Shown here piece after piece: positions 32,723 to 41,292 of a stretch of 51,407 nt of DNA (positions are counted from its first letter, which is position 1; each line of letters starts with the position of its first letter). The position numbers were made by a program, and so were the translations under genes. The notes under the pieces were generated by a model, which ran no database searches, was not told where the DNA came from, and worked only from the letters and a program-made list of their open reading frames with translations. Where the stretch lies: contig CALXBE010000016.1 of assembly GCA_944386495.1 (NCBI GenBank), positions 1 to 51,407 on the forward strand, read 5' to 3'. This DNA is from an uncultured Gemmiger sp. Its GTDB lineage: Bacteria > Bacillota > Clostridia > Oscillospirales > Ruminococcaceae.

Positions 32723-32796
32723 CTTTGAAATGTTATATGGTACAATGGCATTAGAATTCTGTGTGGGAAGACCCGGAAAAGGAAGGAGACACTGCC

Positions 32797-33381
32797 ATGA
32801 CCGAACGGGAAAAAATGCTGGCCGGACAGCTTTACGACTGCGGAGACCCGGAACTGCTCACCCAATGGCATAAGGCCAAGGATCTGGCCCGGGAATACAA
32901 CAACCTTCCCTCGGCCCAGACCGGGGAAAAGGAAAAGATTCTCCGGCAGCTGCTGGGAGGAATGGGAGAACGGCTTTGGATCACCCCGCCCTTCTATGTG
33001 GATTACGGAAACAATATTTATTTCGGGAACAACTGCGAAGTAAACATGAACTGCATTTTCCTGGATGATAATGAAATCCGGATCGGGGATAATGCCCTCA
33101 TTGCGCCGGGAGTCCAGATTTATACTGCTTTTCACCCTCTGCGGGCGGAAGACCGGTTTGGCCCCCTGCAGCCGGATGGCTCCTTTGCTTTCTGCAAAAC
33201 CCAGACTGCTCCCGTGACCATTGGAAACAATGTCTGGATCGGGGGAGGGGTCATCATCCTGCCCGGAGTTACCATTGGAGACAATGTGGTCATAGGGGCG
33301 GGGAGCGTTGTTGCCAAGGATATCCCCAGCAACACGGTGGCGGTGGGAAATCCCTGCCGTGTAGTCCGGCCCAATTTGTAA
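32797..33381 (+). CDS. Sugar O-acetyltransferase (Maa/LacA/NodL family)
   Basis: A 194-residue left-handed beta-helix acetyltransferase that moves acetyl from acetyl-CoA to a sugar hydroxyl. The N-terminal cap (MLAGQLYDCGDPELLTQWHKAKDL) is typical of maltose/galactoside acetyltransferases. Hexapeptide repeats run from about residue 70 to the end (IGNNVWIGGGVIILPGVTIGDNVVIGAGSVVAKDIP). The catalytic His lies in YTAFHPL. The sugar cannot be specified; such enzymes detoxify excess sugars or decorate glycans. The ATG at 32797 follows GAAGGAGA. Confidence 0.92.
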   Translation: MTEREKMLAGQLYDCGDPELLTQWHKAKDLAREYNNLPSAQTGEKEKILRQLLGGMGERLWITPPFYVDYGNNIYFGNNCEVNMNCIFLDDNEIRIGDNALIAPGVQIYTAFHPLRAEDRFGPLQPDGSFAFCKTQTAPVTIGNNVWIGGGVIILPGVTIGDNVVIGAGSVVAKDIPSNTVAVGNPCRVVRPNL

Positions 33382-33384
33382 AAC

Positions 33385-33419
33385 CAAGAACCCCCTCCCG
33401 GAAAGGAAGGGGGTTCTTG
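33385..33419 (+). terminator. Strong hairpin after the acetyltransferase
   Basis: CAAGAACCCCCTCC (33385-33398) pairs with GGAAGGGGGTTCTTG (33405-33419). The stem is strong but no U-tract follows, so it may act as a weak terminator or a 3' stabiliser. Confidence 0.6.
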
Positions 33420-33457
33420 TACATCTATAAAGAGGAAACGGAAATGTCTTAACTTGT

Positions 33458-33492
33458 CTCGAGCGCAGTTCGCCTTTTGAACTGCGCTCGAG
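33458..33492. repeat. Perfect 14-bp inverted repeat
   Basis: CTCGAGCGCAGTTC (33458-33471) and its exact complement (33479-33492) flank the 7-base loop GCCTTTT. Neither strand has a T-run after it, so it is not a standard terminator. It stands at the left edge of the structured region and may be its first helix or a separate palindromic unit. Confidence 0.75.
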
Positions 33493-33499
33493 TGATCTA

Positions 33500-33675
33500 T
33501 TGAAACCACTGAACCGCCGAGAGAGGGAACCATTGCCGTAGGCATATCCGGAGCCTTTGCTCCGGCATCGGGGTGAGTTCCCGGCGGAAGATTCCGAGTT
33601 TTCCAGTGGATTGGAAAGGCCCTCCCAAAGTGACAGGCCGGACGAAGGGGGCCCGGAAAAATGCCCGCAGGGCAA
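33500..33675 (+). ncRNA. Candidate structured RNA in a gene-free region
   Basis: Nested, mutually compatible helices: CCACTG (33506-33511) with CAGTGG (33604-33609); CCGCC (33514-33518) with GGCGG (33583-33587); GGGAAC (33525-33530) with GTTCCC (33577-33582); inside these TGCC/GGCA (33534-33544) and CCGGAGC/GCTCCGG (33548-33565, loop CTTT). A second domain pairs GGCCCTC (33618-33624) with GGGGGCC (33647-33653), then TGCCC/GGGCA (33662-33674). Five nested or adjacent helices in 170 bases are hard to explain by chance. The strand is uncertain: plus is assumed from the orientation of neighbours. It could belong to a known large clostridial RNA class (for example raiA), which I cannot confirm. 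Confidence 0.5.
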
Positions 33676-33801
33676 AATCAAAAGCAAGGAAAATAGAATA
33701 GAGAAGAATAGAGATAAAAGAAAAATCAAAAACAACAGTCTTGGAAATGGTCTGTGATATAACCTCCTTTCTTGCCGGGGGTGCCGGCTTGCTATGGTTA
33801 T
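33676..33801. other. Purine-rich linker and anti-Shine-Dalgarno-like sequence
   Basis: A ~60-base stretch is almost free of pyrimidines on the plus strand (33680-33740). It is followed by ACCTCCTTTCT (33763-33773), which equals the anti-Shine-Dalgarno end of 16S rRNA. A small hairpin GCCGG/CCGGC (33774-33788) comes next. Read on the minus strand the same bases form AAAGGAGG, a ribosome site, but no ATG, GTG or TTG follows at a usable distance. I see no convincing gene on either strand. Confidence 0.4.
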
Positions 33802-33834
33802 AGGATAACAGCCATTCCTAAAGATGCACTAAAG
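33802..33834 (-). promoter_or_regulatory. Candidate minus-strand promoter with 11-bp TTTAG repeats
   Basis: On the minus strand two TTTAG boxes are offset by exactly 11 bases (plus-strand CTAAA at 33829-33833 and 33818-33822). TTTAGG is followed by 9 bases and then TATCCT (33802-33807), the same layout as the shared promoters at 36558-36589 and 45346-45388 but with a weaker -10. It would drive transcription leftwards into the structured region. Confidence 0.4.
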
Positions 33835-33882
33835 AAAAGTGTGAAGACTTTGTAAAACCCGCTGCCCACAGGGGTTCCTTTC

Positions 33883-33911
33883 TTGACAGCGGGAGGATGG
33901 TTTTTTAAACT
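33883..33911 (+). promoter_or_regulatory. Promoter of the first two-component system
   Basis: Consensus TTGACA (33883-33888), 17 bases, TAAACT (33906-33911). The -35 overlaps an inverted repeat CCCGCTG/CAGCGGG (33859-33865 with 33887-33893). Confidence 0.6.
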
Positions 33912-33942
33912 GAATAAAAGAAAAATAAGGCACGAAGAACCC

Positions 33943-33959
33943 TTTAGGCTGAATTTAGC
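33943..33959 (+). promoter_or_regulatory. TTTAG direct repeat before the response-regulator gene
   Basis: TTTAGG (33943) and TTTAGC (33954) are offset by 11 bases, one helical turn, the spacing used by OmpR-type regulators. It lies 45 bases before the regulator start and could be an autoregulatory site (inference). Confidence 0.35.
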
Positions 33960-34003
33960 TTTGAAGGGGATTCTGTTTTTACTGACAGAAGGGAGGCAGG
34001 AGT

Positions 34004-34678
34004 ATGAAGCTGCTGGTAGCGGAAGACAATCCCAAATTCCTCAAATCCTTGGTTCATATATTGGAAAACGGAAAATTCATGGTGGATGGAGTGGATAATG
34101 GGGAAGATGCTCTCCAATACGCCGCCACCGGAGAATATGACGGCCTGGTACTGGATATTATGATGCCCGGAAAGGACGGCCTGGAGGTGCTCCAGGAATT
34201 GCGCCGGAAGGGAATCAATACCCCCACTCTTTTCCTTACCGCCCGTACCGAGATTTCCCAGCGGGTGGAGGGGCTGGATGCGGGGGCAGATGACTACCTG
34301 CCCAAACCTTTCTCCACCGCAGAACTGCTTGCCCGGATACGGGCCATGCTGAGAAGGAAGGATACCTACCTTCCGGACCTGCTTTCCCTGAAAGGGGTGA
34401 CCCTGAACCGGTCCACCTATCAGCTTACCTGGGAAGGGAAAAGCCAGTCTCTCAGCGGAAAAGAGTTTCAAATCCTTGAAATGATGATGCAGGCGCCGGG
34501 GACCATCCTGCCCACAGAACGGTTTATTACTCACCTGTGGGGATGGGATGCCACGGTGGATACCAGTGTGGTCTGGGTCCATATTTCCAATCTGCGGAAA
34601 AAGATCACAGCACTGGGAGCCCCTCTGGAAATCCGGTTTGTACGGAATGCAGGATATATGCTGGAGGTGGGAGAATGA
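34004..34678 (+). CDS. OmpR-family response regulator
   Basis: A 224-residue two-component regulator. The receiver domain (1-~118) has the acidic pocket E7-D8, phospho-acceptor Asp51 in LVLDIMMPG, Thr in FLTART and Lys in LPKPFS. The C-terminal winged helix (about 128-220) ends in VDTSVVWVHISNLRKKI and RFVRNAGYML, typical of OmpR/PhoB DNA-binding domains that bind tandem direct repeats. The ATG at 34004 follows GGGAGGCAGG. Its stop overlaps the kinase start (ATGA). It is a candidate regulator for the TTAAGG/TTTAG boxes in this island. Confidence 0.93.
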   Translation: MKLLVAEDNPKFLKSLVHILENGKFMVDGVDNGEDALQYAATGEYDGLVLDIMMPGKDGLEVLQELRRKGINTPTLFLTARTEISQRVEGLDAGADDYLPKPFSTAELLARIRAMLRRKDTYLPDLLSLKGVTLNRSTYQLTWEGKSQSLSGKEFQILEMMMQAPGTILPTERFITHLWGWDATVDTSVVWVHISNLRKKITALGAPLEIRFVRNAGYMLEVGE

Positions 34679-35904
34679 TCAAAGCGCTGCGGAAACGGTT
34701 TATCACCATCTGCGGCTTGTCCATCCTGACGGTGTTTACCGGTATATTTATATTGCTCTGGGTGTTCAGCCGGGCGCAGATGAACCGGACCCTGGATATG
34801 CTCACGGACACCATCTCCTCCAATGAAGGGGTTTTCCCGGAGTTTGACCCGGATAACCGGGAACCGTTCCCTTTCCCGGGACTGGACGAAATCACCGAGG
34901 AAACCCGGTTCAGCACCCGCTTTTTTACGGTGTGGCTCAATAAAAGCCACCAGATAAAGCGGGTGAACATGAACTGGGTGGCCGCAGTGCTGGAAGAGGA
35001 TGTGGAGGACTATGTAAAGGAGGCTCTGGCGGACGGGGTAGACCGGGGCTGGGTAGGAAACTACCGGTACAAACAGGTGAACACCCTGGGAGGTTCCACC
35101 CTGGTATTCGTAAACGGGACCACCTATCAGAACACCACCAGCAGGATTTTGCTCACGGCATTTTTTGTTCTTCTGGGAAGCGGGATTTTGATATTGCTGT
35201 TGGTTATCGTTATCTCCAAGCGGGCAGTGGCACCCATCGCCCAAAGCTATGAGAAGCAGAAACAGTTTGTCACAGATGCCAACCACGAACTGAAAACCCC
35301 TCTTACCCTTATCCTGTCCAACCTGGATATACTGGAATCAGAGGTGGGCAAGAATGAATGGCTGGAGGACATCCGCTCCGAGGGGCAGCGGATGGGACTG
35401 CTGATCAACCAGATGGTCACCCTTTCCCGGATGGATGAAACCGAGACCCTTATAAGCCATGCTCCCTTTGACATAAGCGGGGTGGTGGAACAGACTGTGT
35501 CCGCCTTCCAGCCCCTGGCGGAGGAACAGGGTAAACATCTTACCGCAGAGATAACGCCCGACCTTACCCTGGAAGGGGACGAGTCCATGATTCGCCGGCT
35601 GGCGGCCATCCTTCTGGACAACAGCGTGAAATACTGTGACCAGGGAGGAGAGATACGGGTCAGACTATTCCGGCGCAGACACCTGATTTTCACGGTGGAG
35701 AATACCTATGCCGCAGTGAACCAGCTGGAACTGGACCGGCTGTTTGACCGCTTCTACCGGGCTGATAAAGCCCGTACCGCTTCCGGCAGCTTCGGGGTGG
35801 GCTTGTCCATAGCACAGTCCATTGTAAAAGTTCACAAGGGAAATATCTCCGCCTACAAAAAAGAGGGAGAAATCGGGTTCCGGGTAGAATTAAAGGAAAA
35901 ATAA
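34675..35904 (+). CDS. Sensor histidine kinase with non-canonical ATP lid
   Basis: A 409-residue membrane kinase. Membrane helices lie at about 8-30 and 160-182, with a ~130-residue extracellular sensor between. No clear HAMP domain is present; the helix leads straight to the H-box FVTDANHELKTPL, with His204 the phosphorylated residue. The N-box LLDNSVKYCDQGG and the G2-like SGSFGVGLSIAQSIV are present. The usual G1 motif DxGxG is replaced by VENTYAAVNQLELDRLF; similar N-for-D forms occur in other clostridial kinases, so activity is plausible. The partner is the regulator encoded just upstream. Confidence 0.9.
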   Translation: MIKALRKRFITICGLSILTVFTGIFILLWVFSRAQMNRTLDMLTDTISSNEGVFPEFDPDNREPFPFPGLDEITEETRFSTRFFTVWLNKSHQIKRVNMNWVAAVLEEDVEDYVKEALADGVDRGWVGNYRYKQVNTLGGSTLVFVNGTTYQNTTSRILLTAFFVLLGSGILILLLVIVISKRAVAPIAQSYEKQKQFVTDANHELKTPLTLILSNLDILESEVGKNEWLEDIRSEGQRMGLLINQMVTLSRMDETETLISHAPFDISGVVEQTVSAFQPLAEEQGKHLTAEITPDLTLEGDESMIRRLAAILLDNSVKYCDQGGEIRVRLFRRRHLIFTVENTYAAVNQLELDRLFDRFYRADKARTASGSFGVGLSIAQSIVKVHKGNISAYKKEGEIGFRVELKEK

Positions 35905-35944
35905 GAAATATAGCCCCCGAAACTGTGCGAATATCTTGAAAAAA

Positions 35945-35953
35945 TGTTATAAT
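35945..35953 (+). promoter_or_regulatory. Extended -10 promoter of the DUF3592-like gene
   Basis: TGTTATAAT is an extended -10 box (TG one base before consensus TATAAT, 35948-35953). No good -35 is seen, which suits extended -10 promoters. Confidence 0.55.
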
Positions 35954-36013
35954 TAACCCATCAGATAAAAGCGGTGCTGGAATCAGCAAGACCGGTTGAA
36001 GGGGGAAGATACC

Positions 36014-36418
36014 ATGCCCAGTGACGGAGTAATGATTTTGATTACATTTGGGTTGATAATATTTGTTCCACTGGCTGTTGTGATGCTTATACTGCTGATA
36101 GCCAGAAACAGCCGGGAGCGAAAGAAAAAGAACTACAAAGGCTTTGCACAGGGGACAGTGGAAAAGATACGCCCCGGAGGACCTGACCATCCGGATGTGC
36201 TCTATGTTTCCTATTCCGTAAAAGGGGTACAGTATCAGGTCAAGGAAACGCTGAAGTTGAAAAGTGAATTTATAAAGCTGGGCGGTATCCCCATAGGACA
36301 GCGTAAAACCTATAAAATGGGAAAACTGGCGAAAGGAGACATGGTTACCGTGCAGTATGATGAAAAGGAACCCAGCCGCGCCATCATACTGGGCAACGAT
36401 GGCATGGTAACTGGCTGA
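36014..36418 (+). CDS. DUF3592-like membrane protein
   Basis: A 134-residue protein with one strong N-terminal membrane helix (about 6-30, ILITFGLIIFVPLAVVMLILLIA), a basic cytoplasmic stretch, and a small beta domain (GTVEKIRPGGPDHPDVLYVSYSVKGVQYQVKE...GDMVTVQYDEKEPSRAII) resembling DUF3592, whose role is unknown. The ATG at 36014 was chosen because GGGGGAAG lies upstream. It has its own promoter and terminator between the first two-component system and the Gld-like operon; any functional link is inference. Confidence 0.72.
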   Translation: MPSDGVMILITFGLIIFVPLAVVMLILLIARNSRERKKKNYKGFAQGTVEKIRPGGPDHPDVLYVSYSVKGVQYQVKETLKLKSEFIKLGGIPIGQRKTYKMGKLAKGDMVTVQYDEKEPSRAIILGNDGMVTG

Positions 36419-36508
36419 GAGATTCTGCCTAAAGGCCCATTTGCCCCAGAAACTATCTTTTAAAAGGGAAAAAGCTTGAACGATTCCCCAGAATAGGAAT
36501 GCCTGTCA

Positions 36509-36541
36509 GGAAGGTCCGGAAAAACCGGGCCTTCCTTTTTT
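36509..36541 (+). terminator. Terminator of the DUF3592-like gene
   Basis: GGAAGG-CCGG (36509-36519) pairs with CCGG-CCTTCC (36525-36535), then six T. Confidence 0.9.
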
Positions 36542-36557
36542 GCGTTTATCTTGTTTC

Positions 36558-36589
36558 TTTAGGATGAATTAAGGCTGGGCTTCTATACT
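36558..36589 (+). promoter_or_regulatory. Regulated promoter of the Gld-like ABC operon
   Basis: TTTAGG (36558-36563) and TTAAGG (36569-36574) form a direct repeat with 11-base offset. Nine bases after the second box comes TATACT (36584-36589). The block TTAAGGCTGG-N5-TATACT is the same as in the MacB-like operon promoter at 45346. No consensus -35 is present, so the repeat probably binds an OmpR-type activator that replaces it. Confidence 0.6.
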
Positions 36590-36643
36590 GTATCCGAAGC
36601 GGCCAGGCAGCCGGCTGCAATAATCAGTAAAGGAGGCTCCTCC

Positions 36644-37621
36644 ATGATAAAAGTGGAGCACTTGACCAAATACTGCGGCGAGTTTTTGGCGGTGGACGAT
36701 CTGTCCTTTGAAATAGGAGAGGGACAGGTATACGGATTTCTGGGCCCCAACGGAGCGGGAAAAAGCACCACCATGAACATTATGACCGGGTGCCTGTCCG
36801 CTACCTCGGGCAAGGTGGAAATAGGGGGATTCGATATATTCGAAGACCCGGACCAGGCCAAACGGCTGATTGGGTATCTGCCGGAACAGCCGCCCCTCTA
36901 TATGAATGAGACCCCGCTGGAATACCTGCATTTTGTAGGCCAGGCCAAGGGTCTGCGGGGGCAGGCTTTGGAAGACCAGATTCAGAATGTAGTGGATAAG
37001 GTGGGAATCAGACCGGTGACCCACAAACGGATCTCGGCTCTGTCCAAAGGATACAAGCAGCGGGTGGGAATCGCCCAGGCCCTGCTGGGAGACCCCAAGG
37101 TGATCATTCTGGACGAACCCACCGTGGGTCTGGACCCCCTTCAAATCATCGAAATTCGGGATCTTATCAAGGACCTGGGAAAAAATCACACAGTCATTCT
37201 CAGTTCCCACATTCTGTCTGAAGTCCAGGCCATCTGCGAAAAGATCCTGATTATTGCCCATGGCAAGCTGGTGGCCTTTGACCGGGCGGAAAACCTGGAA
37301 AACACCCTTCTCTCAGACAGTGAGATTACCCTTTTGACCGGGGCAAAACCGGAACAGGTCACCAAGATTCTGGCCGGGGTAGAGGGGGTGGGGGATTATA
37401 CCCAAACCCCCGGGGAGGAAGGAATGCTGACAGTCAGCATCAAAACCGGGGACCGGGATTTGTACGGCCTTTCCTCCCGTGTGTTTGCCGCCTTTGCCAA
37501 GAGCGGCGGGACCCTGGCCGAGCTGCGGGTGAAGAAGGCAACTCTGGAAGATATATTTATCCAGCTTACCGAAACTCCAAAGGCTGCGGGAGCAGGAAAG
37601 AAGGAGGCTGAGGAAAAATGA
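36644..37621 (+). CDS. ABC transporter ATPase (GldA/ABC-2 type)
   Basis: A 325-residue ATPase. Walker A is GPNGAGKST, the Q-loop region is YLPEQPPLY, the signature LSKGYKQRVGIAQAL, Walker B VIILDEPTVGLDP, and the switch His lies in ILSSHIL. A ~90-residue C-terminal extension (from about 225) is typical of GldA/CcmA-like ATPases. It is the first gene of a four-gene operon: ATPase, permease, GldG-like, DUF4340. It powers export or envelope remodelling; the cargo is unknown. GGAGGCT precedes the ATG; the stop overlaps the permease start. Confidence 0.92.
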   Translation: MIKVEHLTKYCGEFLAVDDLSFEIGEGQVYGFLGPNGAGKSTTMNIMTGCLSATSGKVEIGGFDIFEDPDQAKRLIGYLPEQPPLYMNETPLEYLHFVGQAKGLRGQALEDQIQNVVDKVGIRPVTHKRISALSKGYKQRVGIAQALLGDPKVIILDEPTVGLDPLQIIEIRDLIKDLGKNHTVILSSHILSEVQAICEKILIIAHGKLVAFDRAENLENTLLSDSEITLLTGAKPEQVTKILAGVEGVGDYTQTPGEEGMLTVSIKTGDRDLYGLSSRVFAAFAKSGGTLAELRVKKATLEDIFIQLTETPKAAGAGKKEAEEK

Positions 37622-38481
37622 TTGCTGTATTGAGCCATGAGCTGCGAAGCTATTTCCATTCTTTTACCGCCTATGTGTTTGGAGCCTTTCTGCTGGCGGT
37701 GGTAGGCTTCGGGGCTATACTTTATAACCTCCAGGCGGCGGTAAGTAATTTTGAGTATGTGCTGGGATTCGGAACCATTATTTTTGTGATCATTGTTCCC
37801 ATCCTGACCATGCGGGTGATTGCGGAAGAAAGGCGACAGAAAACAGACCGGCTCCTTTACTCTCTCCCCATCAGCACCACCCAGATCGTGCTGGGCAAAT
37901 ACCTGGCCCTGTTGGCAGTCTACCTGATTCCTCTGGCCATTATCTCCATTTATCCCCTTATCTTTGCCCAGTTTGGTGAGGTGTACCTGCCCACCTCCTA
38001 TGGTTCTCTGGCGGCTATCTTTATTATGGGGGCCGCCCTGGTGGCGGTGGGGGTGTTCATCTCCTCCCTTACCGATAACCAGGGCCTGGCCGCAGGGGTA
38101 GGGATCGCCGTGATCCTTTTCAACTATTACAGTGTCAGCCTGTCGGAATATGTGTCCTCCACTGCTCTGGGCAGCGCCGTAGCCCTGGCTGTGCTGGTGC
38201 TGGCCCTGGGAATCCTCATCCGGTATCTTACCGGCAGCGAAATGCTGGCCTATGCGGTCTGCCTGGGAATCATGGCAGTCCTCTGCCTGATCAGTTTCCT
38301 GAATCCGGGCTCCCTGGAAGGGATACTTCCGGCCATTATGAAAAAGCTCTCCCTCTTTGACCGGTTCAATACCTTTGTCAACGGAGTGTTTGATTTGACC
38401 GCCATTGTCTACTATGTATCGGTCATTCTGCTTTTTCTCTTTCTCTCGGTTCAGTCTTTGGAAAAGAGGAGGTATAACTGA
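37618..38481 (+). CDS. ABC-2 type permease (GldF-like)
   Basis: A 287-residue permease with six to seven membrane helices. EERRQKTDRLLYSLPISTTQIVLGKYLA is the conserved cytoplasmic ABC-2 segment near residues 68-95. It should pair with the ATPase encoded just upstream (ATGA overlap). GldF is the nearest named relative by gene order; in Bacteroidetes it is linked to gliding, which is not expected here. The stop and the next start share TGATG. Confidence 0.88.
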   Translation: MIAVLSHELRSYFHSFTAYVFGAFLLAVVGFGAILYNLQAAVSNFEYVLGFGTIIFVIIVPILTMRVIAEERRQKTDRLLYSLPISTTQIVLGKYLALLAVYLIPLAIISIYPLIFAQFGEVYLPTSYGSLAAIFIMGAALVAVGVFISSLTDNQGLAAGVGIAVILFNYYSVSLSEYVSSTALGSAVALAVLVLALGILIRYLTGSEMLAYAVCLGIMAVLCLISFLNPGSLEGILPAIMKKLSLFDRFNTFVNGVFDLTAIVYYVSVILLFLFLSVQSLEKRRYN

Positions 38482-39926
38482 TGAAAAAAGAGAATCTCAC
38501 CTCCCTGACCAAGGGCAAGACCACAAAGACCATCGCCTTTCAGGGAGGTGCCTACTCTCTGGTAGCCACGGCTCTGGTGCTGGCCATCCTTATTCTTTGC
38601 AATGTGCTGGCGGAAGCCCTGCCGGCCAGCTTGACCCGGTATGATATCAGTGCCAGCAAGCTCTGCTCCATCACCAGCAACACCAAGGTGGTGGTCAACG
38701 CCCTGGAGGAGGATGTGACCATCTACTGGATCGTTCAGTCCGGGGAGGAGGACCAGGTCATTGAAACCCTCCTGAGCAAATATGATAGCCTCTCTGACCA
38801 CATTACGGTGGTCAAGAAGAACCCGGATGTATATCCCACCTTTGCAGAGCAGTACACCGATGAGACGGTGCAGAACAACAGCCTTGTGGTGGAATGCGGA
38901 GACCGGAGCCGGTTTATCGGGTATGATGACATTTATCTCCAGGAAACCGACCTGTACTCCTACACCTACACCACATCCTTCGATGGTGAGGGCGCCATTA
39001 CCTCGGCCATTGACTATGTGGTGACCGAGGACTTGCCCCGTCTGTATATTCTGGAAGGCCACGGGGAGCAGGAACTGCCCCAGAACTTCCAGGAACAGAT
39101 TGAGAAGGAAAACATTGAAACTGAATCCCTTTCTCTTCTGACGGTGGATGAAATCCCGGAAAATGCCGATGCCCTTCTGATTTACCAGCCTTCTTCCGAC
39201 CTGTCCCAGGAGGAAGTGGAAATGCTGGATGAATATACCCGCTCGGGAGGAAAGCTGCTGGTAATGGCCGGACCTACCCGGGAGAGCAGCCTGGAGAACC
39301 TGTACAGCCTGCTGGAACAGTACGGGGTGGAAACCAGCGAAGGAATCTTGGTGGAAGGGGACCGTACCCGGTACACCGGCTATCCCTATATCCTGCTCCC
39401 CGAAATGCAGGAGCATGACATTACCAGCTCCCTCATTGAGGAAAATTACTATCCCAATATGCCTATCTCCCAGGGAATGTGGCTGGAGGAAGAAAACGAT
39501 GCCGTTACTGTCCTTATGACCACCAGCGAGCAGTCCTTCAATAAGGCGGCAGGATATAACCTGACCACCTACGAAAAGGAGGATGGAGACCTGGAAGGCC
39601 CCTTTGCGGTAGCCCTTGCTGTGGACTGCGGCAACGAAGGCCAGATGGTCTGGTTCTCCTCTGCATCCTTCCTGGAGGATATGTACAACGCTTTGTCCTC
39701 CGGCTCCAACTCCGACCTGGCCATGAACAGCCTGTCCTACCTGCTTGGGGAGAGCGAAGCCATGGCCATCCGGAGCAAGTCTCTCAACTATAACTACCTG
39801 TCTATCACCGACTCCACCGCCTCTTTCCTGAAAGTCCTTATGATTGGGGTATTCCCCCTGGGCTACCTGGGTGTAGGTGTTTGGGTGATTCTCAGAAGAA
39901 GGAGGAACCAGAATGAAGCGTGCTAA
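38481..39926 (+). CDS. GldG-like auxiliary protein of an ABC transporter
   Basis: A 481-residue protein with one N-terminal (about 21-42) and one C-terminal membrane helix (about 452-474), leaving a ~410-residue extracytoplasmic domain. The segment ITSNTKVVVNALEEDVTIYWI, the LYILEGHGEQELPQNF block and the DALLIYQPSSDLSQEEVEMLDEYTRSGGKLLVMAGP block match the GldG/ABC_transp_aux family. It probably works as an extracytoplasmic partner of the ABC-2 complex. Translation is coupled to the genes on both sides. Confidence 0.87.
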   Translation: MKKENLTSLTKGKTTKTIAFQGGAYSLVATALVLAILILCNVLAEALPASLTRYDISASKLCSITSNTKVVVNALEEDVTIYWIVQSGEEDQVIETLLSKYDSLSDHITVVKKNPDVYPTFAEQYTDETVQNNSLVVECGDRSRFIGYDDIYLQETDLYSYTYTTSFDGEGAITSAIDYVVTEDLPRLYILEGHGEQELPQNFQEQIEKENIETESLSLLTVDEIPENADALLIYQPSSDLSQEEVEMLDEYTRSGGKLLVMAGPTRESSLENLYSLLEQYGVETSEGILVEGDRTRYTGYPYILLPEMQEHDITSSLIEENYYPNMPISQGMWLEEENDAVTVLMTTSEQSFNKAAGYNLTTYEKEDGDLEGPFAVALAVDCGNEGQMVWFSSASFLEDMYNALSSGSNSDLAMNSLSYLLGESEAMAIRSKSLNYNYLSITDSTASFLKVLMIGVFPLGYLGVGVWVILRRRRNQNEAC

Positions 39927-41292
39927 AAAGCTGTATGGACTGCTGGGAATCCTGGCTGTGATTTGTATTGCTACCTTCCTGGTGATGGGGTACCAGGAAA
40001 AGCAGGAGAAAATTCAGGAGAGCGGCCAGACAGTGCTGGAGCTTGACCCGGACCAGGTCCAGGCCATTTCCTGGGAATATGAAGGCCAGACCCTTTCTTT
40101 CCGGAAAGAGGAGGACACCTGGAAATACGAGGACGACGATGCCTTCCCGGTAAACCAGGAGGAGATAGCCCGGATGCTGGAACGGTTCCGGGAACTGGGA
40201 GCCGCCTTCATTATTGAAGATGTGACCGATTACGGCCAGTATGGCCTGGATGAGCCCATCTGCACCATCAAGATGGAGACCGGGGACCAGAATTACGAGA
40301 TCACCCTGGGAGATTACAGCACCATGGATTCCCAGAGATATCTTTCCCTGGGGGACGGAAATGTCTATCTGGTGGCAGATGACCCCCTGGAGGACTTTGA
40401 TGCAGTTCTTTCCGAGATGATTCAAAACGATGAAGTCCCGGATTTTGAGGAGGTCAGTGCCATCAGCTTCCAGGGCGAGGATTCCTACCAGGTGACCTAC
40501 CAGGAGTATACCGAGGACAGTCCCTACACCGTCTGTGAGGATGATGTATACTTCAAGGAGGACGGAGAGAATCTTCTGCCCCTGGATACCACCCGGGTGG
40601 AAAGTTATCTCAGCTCCATGACCGCTCTGGACCTGACCCAGTATGAAACCTACACCGCAGGGGAGGAGGACCTGGCCCAGTATGGCCTGGATGCTCCCCA
40701 GCTGACGGTCCAGGTAAGCTATACCCAGGAAGACCAGGAGGAAACCTTCACCCTCAACCTGAGCCGTGACCCGGAGCAGGAACCTCAGGAAGACGAGGAC
40801 CCTGAGTCCATCACTGCCTATGCACAGGTGGAAGGCTCTGCCCTGGTATATAAGATTACCGGGGAAGAGTACCAGACCCTTATGAAGGCAGGGTATGATG
40901 ATCTGCGCCACACCCGGCTCTTTACCGCAGACACGGAAAAGATCACAGGATTTGAAATCACCCTGGACGGGGAGAGCTACACCCTGACCGCCAAGGGAGA
41001 GGGCAACATTTTCCTGACCGGGGAAGAGGAGGAAGAACTGGAAGGAAATGACCTGATAACTGCCCTCACTGCTTTGAATCTGGACAGCTTTACCGACCAG
41101 ACCGCCGACGGACAGGAGGAAATTCGAATCAAGGTCCTTCTGGACAGCGAGGCACATCCCTCCATGGAAATTGTCCTTTATCGGTATGACGGGGAAAACT
41201 GCCTTGCCCAGGTAGACGGGCAGACCATCGGACTGCTGCCCCGGTCCCAGGCTGTTGACCTGATAGAAGCAGTCAACGCCCTGGTTCTGTAA
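39913..41292 (+). CDS. DUF4340 membrane-anchored protein
   Basis: A 459-residue protein with one N-terminal membrane anchor (about 7-26) and an acidic extracytoplasmic body with repeated beta units (ISWEYEGQTLSFRKEEDTWKYEDDDAFPVNQEEIARMLERF...YGLDEPICTIKM). This is the DUF4340 pattern, which commonly follows GldF/GldG genes. The repeats suggest a binding scaffold. The function is unknown. Its start lies 14 bases inside the previous gene. It ends the operon at the terminator near 41316. Confidence 0.87.
   Translation: MKRAKKLYGLLGILAVICIATFLVMGYQEKQEKIQESGQTVLELDPDQVQAISWEYEGQTLSFRKEEDTWKYEDDDAFPVNQEEIARMLERFRELGAAFIIEDVTDYGQYGLDEPICTIKMETGDQNYEITLGDYSTMDSQRYLSLGDGNVYLVADDPLEDFDAVLSEMIQNDEVPDFEEVSAISFQGEDSYQVTYQEYTEDSPYTVCEDDVYFKEDGENLLPLDTTRVESYLSSMTALDLTQYETYTAGEEDLAQYGLDAPQLTVQVSYTQEDQEETFTLNLSRDPEQEPQEDEDPESITAYAQVEGSALVYKITGEEYQTLMKAGYDDLRHTRLFTADTEKITGFEITLDGESYTLTAKGEGNIFLTGEEEEELEGNDLITALTALNLDSFTDQTADGQEEIRIKVLLDSEAHPSMEIVLYRYDGENCLAQVDGQTIGLLPRSQAVDLIEAVNALVL

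What the first reader, a model, noticed from the sequence alone, without database searches (positions are those of the whole stretch)
33500..33790. Gene-free region with nested helices: candidate large structured RNA
Between the acetyltransferase and the response regulator lie about 600 bases with no credible gene. Within 33506-33674 at least six helices nest or follow each other without conflict, including perfect 6- and 7-bp stems. A purine-rich linker and an 11-base match to the 16S anti-Shine-Dalgarno sequence follow. This is what a functional RNA looks like rather than decayed coding DNA. Clostridia carry several large orphan RNAs (for example the raiA class), and this may be one of them or a new one.
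Basis: partly seen in the sequence, partly recalled or inferred. Interest (0 to 1): 0.75.

Follow-up and report, generated by a model that had tools for sequence, protein, structure and literature searches.

The report
Sensor-switched structured RNA in gut Clostridia
Next to a two-component sensor system lies what looks like a gene for a conserved, folded, non-coding RNA that the sensor probably switches on; it matches no RNA family in the library searched, and relatives of it occur in other bacteria of the same order.

Summary
A covariance search found five close homologs besides the window among 396 genomes of the family and more divergent ones in another family of the order. On the six-sequence MAFFT alignment 94.4% of pair cells are standard (31-38% with partners slid) and 15 of 42 pairs show two-sided changes, 0/500 shuffles. 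No Rfam family reaches its threshold. The promoter is a direct repeat TTTAG-N6-TTTAG with a -10 box 10 nt downstream. The exact repeat occurs twice in the held genome (1.89 Mb, 81% complete), both here: before this RNA and before the adjacent response-regulator gene. Period and spacing equal those of CiaR-driven csRNA promoters of streptococci, but the fold is unrelated and no Shine-Dalgarno-complementary stretch is enriched. Best reading: a new structured RNA class under response-regulator control. RNA: supported by covariation. Regulation: inferred. Target: unknown.

The parts
33451..33610 (-). conserved structured RNA (P1 to P5)
   Evidence: covariance model hit 149.6 bits (the window is one of the model's own seeds); fold z -5.61; two-sided changes
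33802..33833 (-). promoter of the RNA: TTTAG-N6-TTTAG, 10 nt, -10 box TATCCT (33807-33802)
33841..33856 (-). further 11-bp direct repeat TTTACA-N5-TTCAC upstream of the box
33611..33795 (-). predicted 5' leader (differs from the other leaders), with Shine-Dalgarno-like AAGAAAGGAGG at 33773-33763 and a pyrimidine-rich tract
   Evidence: start site inferred from the -10 box, not measured
33506..33609 (-). P1 CCACTG/CAGTGG enclosing P2 CCGCC/GGCGG, P3 GGGAAC/GTTCCC, P4 CCGGAGC/GCTCCGG and the core GATGCCG..CGGAT.NGCC
   Evidence: core also in homologs
33458..33492 (-). P5, perfect 14-bp 3' hairpin, loop AAAAGGC (likely 3' end)
   Evidence: 100% of cells paired in A4
33943..33974 (+). second TTTAG-N6-TTTAG box, before the response regulator gene (-10 GATTCT, weak)
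34004..34678 (+). OmpR/PhoB-type response regulator, predicted activator
   Evidence: Pfam Response_reg and Trans_reg_C
34675..35904 (+). sensor histidine kinase
   Evidence: Pfam HisKA and HATPase_c
36558..36589 (+). third box of the window, TTTAG-N6-TTAAG with -10 TATACT, before the ABC transporter genes (36644 on; named from the sequence)

Best explanation
A non-coding RNA gene on the minus strand, controlled by the neighbouring two-component system. The phosphorylated OmpR-type regulator binds the 11-bp direct repeat in place of a -35 box and activates transcription from about 33795. The transcript folds into a stem (P1-P4) with a conserved asymmetric core and ends in a 14-bp hairpin. It most likely acts in trans as a small regulatory RNA of an envelope-related regulon that also contains the regulator's own operon and an ABC exporter. 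Supported by computation: homologs, covariation, promoter conservation, absence of coding. Inferred: activation by this regulator, termination at P5. Guess: the regulon's role, the target and the mode of action (core or P5 loop as contact site).
For: Homologs: blastn 81% over 70 nt in an orthologous locus; model R1 (3 seeds) gives 6 strong hits in 396 genomes, three of them its seeds, E <= 2.4e-26. Covariation: A4 (MAFFT, 6 rows) 94.4% cells paired, 15 of 42 pairs changed on both sides, 0/500 shuffles, slid 31-38%; A7 (11 rows) and A8 (25 rows) agree but are fitted to the model. Strand: 13 G-U against 4 A-C cells in A4, 67 against 20 in A8. Promoter: repeat (up to one mismatch) plus TANNNT at +10 in 8 of 22 RNA loci (of the 25 rows of A8, L252, L253 and L258 were left out) against 0 of 212 stretches of the same loci lying more than 450 nt away; exact repeat only twice in the genome, both here. 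In 5 of the 6 close homologs (window included) a box lies upstream of the RNA.
Against: No transcript, start or end was measured. 14 of 22 RNA loci fail the promoter test, G084 among them; 6 of the 14 have an 11-bp repeat only. A looser score was less sharp: 7 loci reached 14 of 16 (of 28 given; 3 had no core and at least one core was misplaced), while 4.3% of 2000 random stretches of the same loci, true promoters not excluded, did so too. G001 has the regulator and its own box but no RNA was found there; G002 lacks the whole stretch; both assemblies are incomplete (77 and 84%). P5 has no good U-tract. In the window P2 sits one base off the register of the others. Distribution in the family is thin: 6 strong in 396 genomes.
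Confidence: 0.8

Rival explanations
1. A cis-acting 5' leader that controls the gene downstream of it (lipoprotein, HtrA-like protease), not a trans-acting RNA.
For: A lipoprotein-like frame follows in G342, G293, G245 (split in two frames in its assembly), G084 and G240 (named by eye, no Pfam family reached its cut-off in the three scanned); a gene with a Trypsin_2 domain follows in G886 and G932.
Against: In the window no gene follows on that strand; in G576 the next gene (DHHW) and in G049 a similar-looking one are convergent; in the five lipoprotein loci a second box promoter lies between RNA and gene; P5 looks like an end.
Confidence: 0.12
2. In this genome the RNA is an abandoned relic: the lipoprotein unit it belonged to has been lost and only promoter and RNA remain.
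For: Lipoprotein and second box are missing here only, among the six close homologs; leader 185 nt against 23-63 in the four other close homologs with a box, with a stranded Shine-Dalgarno-like site; no RNA found in the two sister genomes.
Against: Box, -10 and all helices intact, with two-sided changes peculiar to this sequence; z -5.61.
Confidence: 0.12
3. A small-peptide gene: the core holds an ATG that opens a 23-codon frame in the window, G245 and G084.
For: Similar frames (MP.Q..R...R and the like) start there in several rows.
Against: The ATG is ACG in G240 and G293; no Shine-Dalgarno site in the 20 nt before it in the close homologs shown; frames end at different lengths or stay open; variation follows base pairing rather than third codon positions (by eye).
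Confidence: 0.03

Closest known systems
csRNAs (CiaR-dependent small RNAs, also Ccn) of streptococci
   Same: Promoter layout: 11-bp direct repeat followed by ten nt and a -10 box (search settings given in PMC3091779, passages seen; repeat also in PMC8186281, passages seen); control by a two-component response regulator; intergenic; followed by a hairpin.
   Different: Other bacteria; box TTTAG-N6-TTTAG rather than TTTAAG-N5-TTTAAG; csRNAs 51-202 nt, here predicted transcripts of 156-345 nt; long multi-helix conserved fold; no enriched Shine-Dalgarno-complementary region.
raiA, ROOL, GOLLD, OLE, HEARO, 6S and other Rfam classes (names recalled)
   Same: Structured non-coding RNA of bacteria (recalled).
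   Different: No match at gathering score for the window's stretch; in the loci of homologs only a sub-threshold STnc490 match by an IS200-type element near G084 and a weak sR28 match.
3161 candidate structured RNAs of human microbiomes (PMC8040213, passages seen)
   Same: Could contain this class.
   Different: Not checked: supplements could not be read; the main text has no hit for response regulator, two-component, Faecalibacterium or Oscillo.

Membership tests
csRNA (CiaR regulon) | 11-bp direct repeat, 10 nt, -10 box | tested here: met
   met for the window and 8 of 22 loci; definition in passages of PMC3091779
csRNA (CiaR regulon) | exact motif TTTAAG-N5-TTTAAG | tested here: not met
   window box is TTTAG-N6-TTTAG; G342 has TTAAG-N6-TTAAG
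csRNA (CiaR regulon) | region complementary to Shine-Dalgarno/AUG | tested here: not met
   longest match to the anti-SD string 0-5 nt in 8 predicted transcripts, not above shuffles
csRNA (CiaR regulon) | regulator is CiaR | tested here: inconclusive
   OmpR-type; below the cut-off of all 25 NCBIfam families shown, of 86; helix VVWVHISNLRKKI resembles VVEVYVSKVRKKL quoted, compared by eye
raiA RNA (Rfam) | match to the Rfam covariance model | tested here: not met
   no such row; presence of raiA in the library is recalled
any Rfam 15 family | score at or above gathering threshold | tested here: not met
functional structured RNA | compensatory base changes | tested here: met
   on fitted alignments
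trans-acting small RNA | discrete transcript and target | not testable with these tools
   no RNA data

The most novel reading that the evidence does not exclude
A previously undescribed structured RNA class of this order whose conserved asymmetric core (GAUGCCG..CGGAU.NGCC) and P5 loop (GGC) touch each other or a protein, making it a machine-like effector of a two-component system rather than a simple antisense RNA. Lead: all 14 A8 rows that have a GGC loop and a readable core have GCC in the core, against 5 of 9 rows with a core but no GGC (Fisher p 0.014, relatedness ignored); of the 25 rows two had no readable core, one of them with a GGC loop.
Probability: 0.35. Interest if true: 0.8.

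Novelty: new variant of a known kind. Interest (0 to 1): 0.62.

Why it matters
It joins a sensor system to a conserved RNA in little-studied bacteria of the gut-clostridia kind, outside streptococci where this promoter logic was described. Because the binding repeat is defined to the base and the exact form is so rare in this genome, the regulon can be read from genomes and tested. The RNA has specific models (R2, R3) that could become a database family.

Tried and rejected
Decayed gene: no coding signal in any frame. Homology of the leader to the genes found behind the same promoter in relatives: judged by eye only. Mobile element: no match in the plasmid or phage collections; the palindrome occurs once in its genome and not in the three others searched; viral-contig pattern scans gave 3 and 16 stretches with short exact matches, which blastn did not extend beyond about 16-24 nt, or none. 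Plain DNA searches: 61 genomes, only the window itself at E <= 1e-3; 396 genomes, the window and matches of about 17-37 nt. None of the five homologous places was matched, so that search was insensitive (its query left out P5). R3 on 31 of the 80 loci: 0 hits up to E = 1. Weak hits that cover only or mainly the 3' hairpin (G280, G480, G600 and others) and the other weak matches were not counted as members. Literature: six searches; of PMC3091779, PMC8186281, PMC8040213 and PMC11109978 I saw passages, of the rest the listing; nothing seen describes this RNA, and other papers or supplements may.

Full report
What was checked. The stretch lies between a maltose-type acetyltransferase gene (32797-33381, +) and an OmpR-type response regulator (34004-34678, +) with its histidine kinase (Pfam). 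No frame in 33490-33700 scores as coding. Rfam gives RNase P and three tRNAs in the window and nothing here; a permissive scan of 33380-34010 up to E = 10 gives ten sub-threshold rows, 6 of them on the terminator and palindrome around 33380-33509.

The promoter. Orthologs of the response regulator were fetched from the family (30 of 396 genomes at E <= 1e-70). A script located the regulator in 22 of the 30 loci (it failed in 8); 14 of the 22, the window included, carry a box of the form TTTAG-N6-TTTAG (up to one mismatch) on the divergent strand within 1400 nt upstream. In relatives such boxes precede what look like ECF-like/HlyD fusions, TauE-like proteins or lipoproteins (named by eye). The exact repeat occurs in the held genome once on each strand, both in this intergenic stretch; the backward control pattern occurs 11 times. 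In five fetched loci all 13 boxes found with up to one mismatch have a TA...T hexamer 10 nt downstream. In the window a tolerant scan finds three boxes: before the RNA (33833-33802, -, TATCCT), before the regulator (33943, +, GATTCT) and before the ABC transporter genes (36558, +, TATACT).

The RNA. Blasting 33420-33800 against all loci then held showed a homolog beside the orthologous regulator of G342 (81% over 70 nt, E 4e-12) and a weaker one in G293. Both, like the window, read leftwards from a box promoter (in G342 the box is TTAAG-N6-TTAAG). A model of these three (R1) found six strong hits in 396 genomes of the family: the three seeds plus G245, G084 and G240; 11 further genomes gave only weak matches, E 1e-5 to 9e-3. 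The genera of G342 and G293 give no more members (3 of 5 and 2 of 4 genomes). In G342, G293, G245 and G240 the order is box, RNA, P5, second box, lipoprotein-like frame, which in G245 is split in two in the assembly; G084 keeps RNA, second box and lipoprotein-like frame but has no box upstream of the RNA; an IS200/IS605-like transposase frame lies beyond its lipoprotein-like gene.

Structure. On a MAFFT alignment of the six (A4) six helices with 42 pairs fit: 94.4% of 252 cells are standard pairs and 15 pairs have changes on both sides, against 87.4% and 6.2 in shuffles and 31-38% and 0-5 with partners slid. I wrote the structure from these sequences, which favours it on percentage paired; the two-sided changes are the stronger evidence. 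Further pair types were less clear (27 against 22.7, 10 of 500 shuffles as high). Counting G-U against A-C cells (13 to 4) favours the minus strand. The window's conserved part folds at -70.3 kcal/mol, z -5.61.

Wider family. Model R2 (six sequences) in 394 genomes of the order: 11 genomes at E <= 1e-3, G000 included; 7 of the 10 others are in one other family. For G480, G513 and G600 the matches cover mainly the 3' hairpin. Model R3 (11 sequences) in 270 genomes of that family: 19 at E <= 1e-4, five of which had served to build it; the best new ones are G886 (7e-20), G905 (2e-19), G939 (2e-15) and G811 (3e-15). The core GAUGCCG..CGGAU.NGCC recurs with variations. Alignments A7 and A8 made with the models give 93.8% paired and covariation scores 0.647 and 0.664 against 0.23 and 0.19 shuffled, but they are fitted to the structure, and A8 includes weak or partial rows (for example L252, L253, L258). 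With a fixed definition of promoter, 8 of 22 RNA loci have it within about 260 nt upstream and 0 of 212 stretches of the same loci away from the RNA do; 6 others, L234, L245, L246, L248, L251 and L257, have an 11-bp repeat only. A looser score separated less well (7 loci against 4.3% of 2000 random stretches). Two RNAs lie before genes with a Trypsin_2 domain, one of them with PDZ and the other cut by the end of the locus, and one before a gene with HlyD-type matches (HlyD_3 above, HlyD_D23 below its cut-off).

Comparison. For streptococcal csRNAs the repeat TTTAAG-N5-TTTAAG and a distance of ten to the -10 region are stated in PMC3091779 (passages). Period 11 and spacing 10 are the same here. 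That is how it works like a csRNA; it is not filed as one, because the motif differs, no Shine-Dalgarno-complementary stretch is enriched in eight predicted transcripts and the fold is different. The kind of bacterium is inferred from names of loci with the closest regulators (Agathobaculum, Oscillospiraceae, Gallacutalibacter and others); the genomes themselves are unnamed, and 'gut' is inferred from those names.

Weighing. That a conserved structured RNA exists: about 0.95. That it is transcribed from the box by this regulator in the window: about 0.85. That it acts in trans: about 0.6. The mode of action is open.

Noticed in passing
window 32738-40714: A 93%-identical sister genome (G002) lacks this 8-kb stretch at this place, including the RNA and the two-component system; a 3' piece of the gene at 39913-41292 remains, which looks like a deletion.
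   Followed up: partly
window 33841-33856 and homologs: Upstream of the box lies a further 11-bp repeat of TTTACA/TTCACA type; some RNAs of the other family have only such a repeat, which recalls Pho-type boxes (recalled).
   Followed up: partly
window 36558-36589: A third regulator box with -10 TATACT precedes the ABC transporter genes; G245 and G342 have boxes with TATACT too, in G245 88 nt before the ATPase gene.
   Followed up: partly
L237 (G480) 1501-1578: The 3' hairpin alone (ACTCAAGCGCAGTTC..GAGACGATTT) recurs in another family behind an unrelated 5' part, so P5 may be a module of its own; similar hairpins in L231 and L215.
   Followed up: no
L210 590-702: Sub-threshold STnc490 match (48.6 bits, gathering 56) near an IS200/IS605-like transposase frame in G084.
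   Followed up: no
window 33765-33781 and 33876-33892: Two similar 17-nt stretches (82%) 111 nt apart, one overlapping the Shine-Dalgarno-like site of the leader.
   Followed up: no
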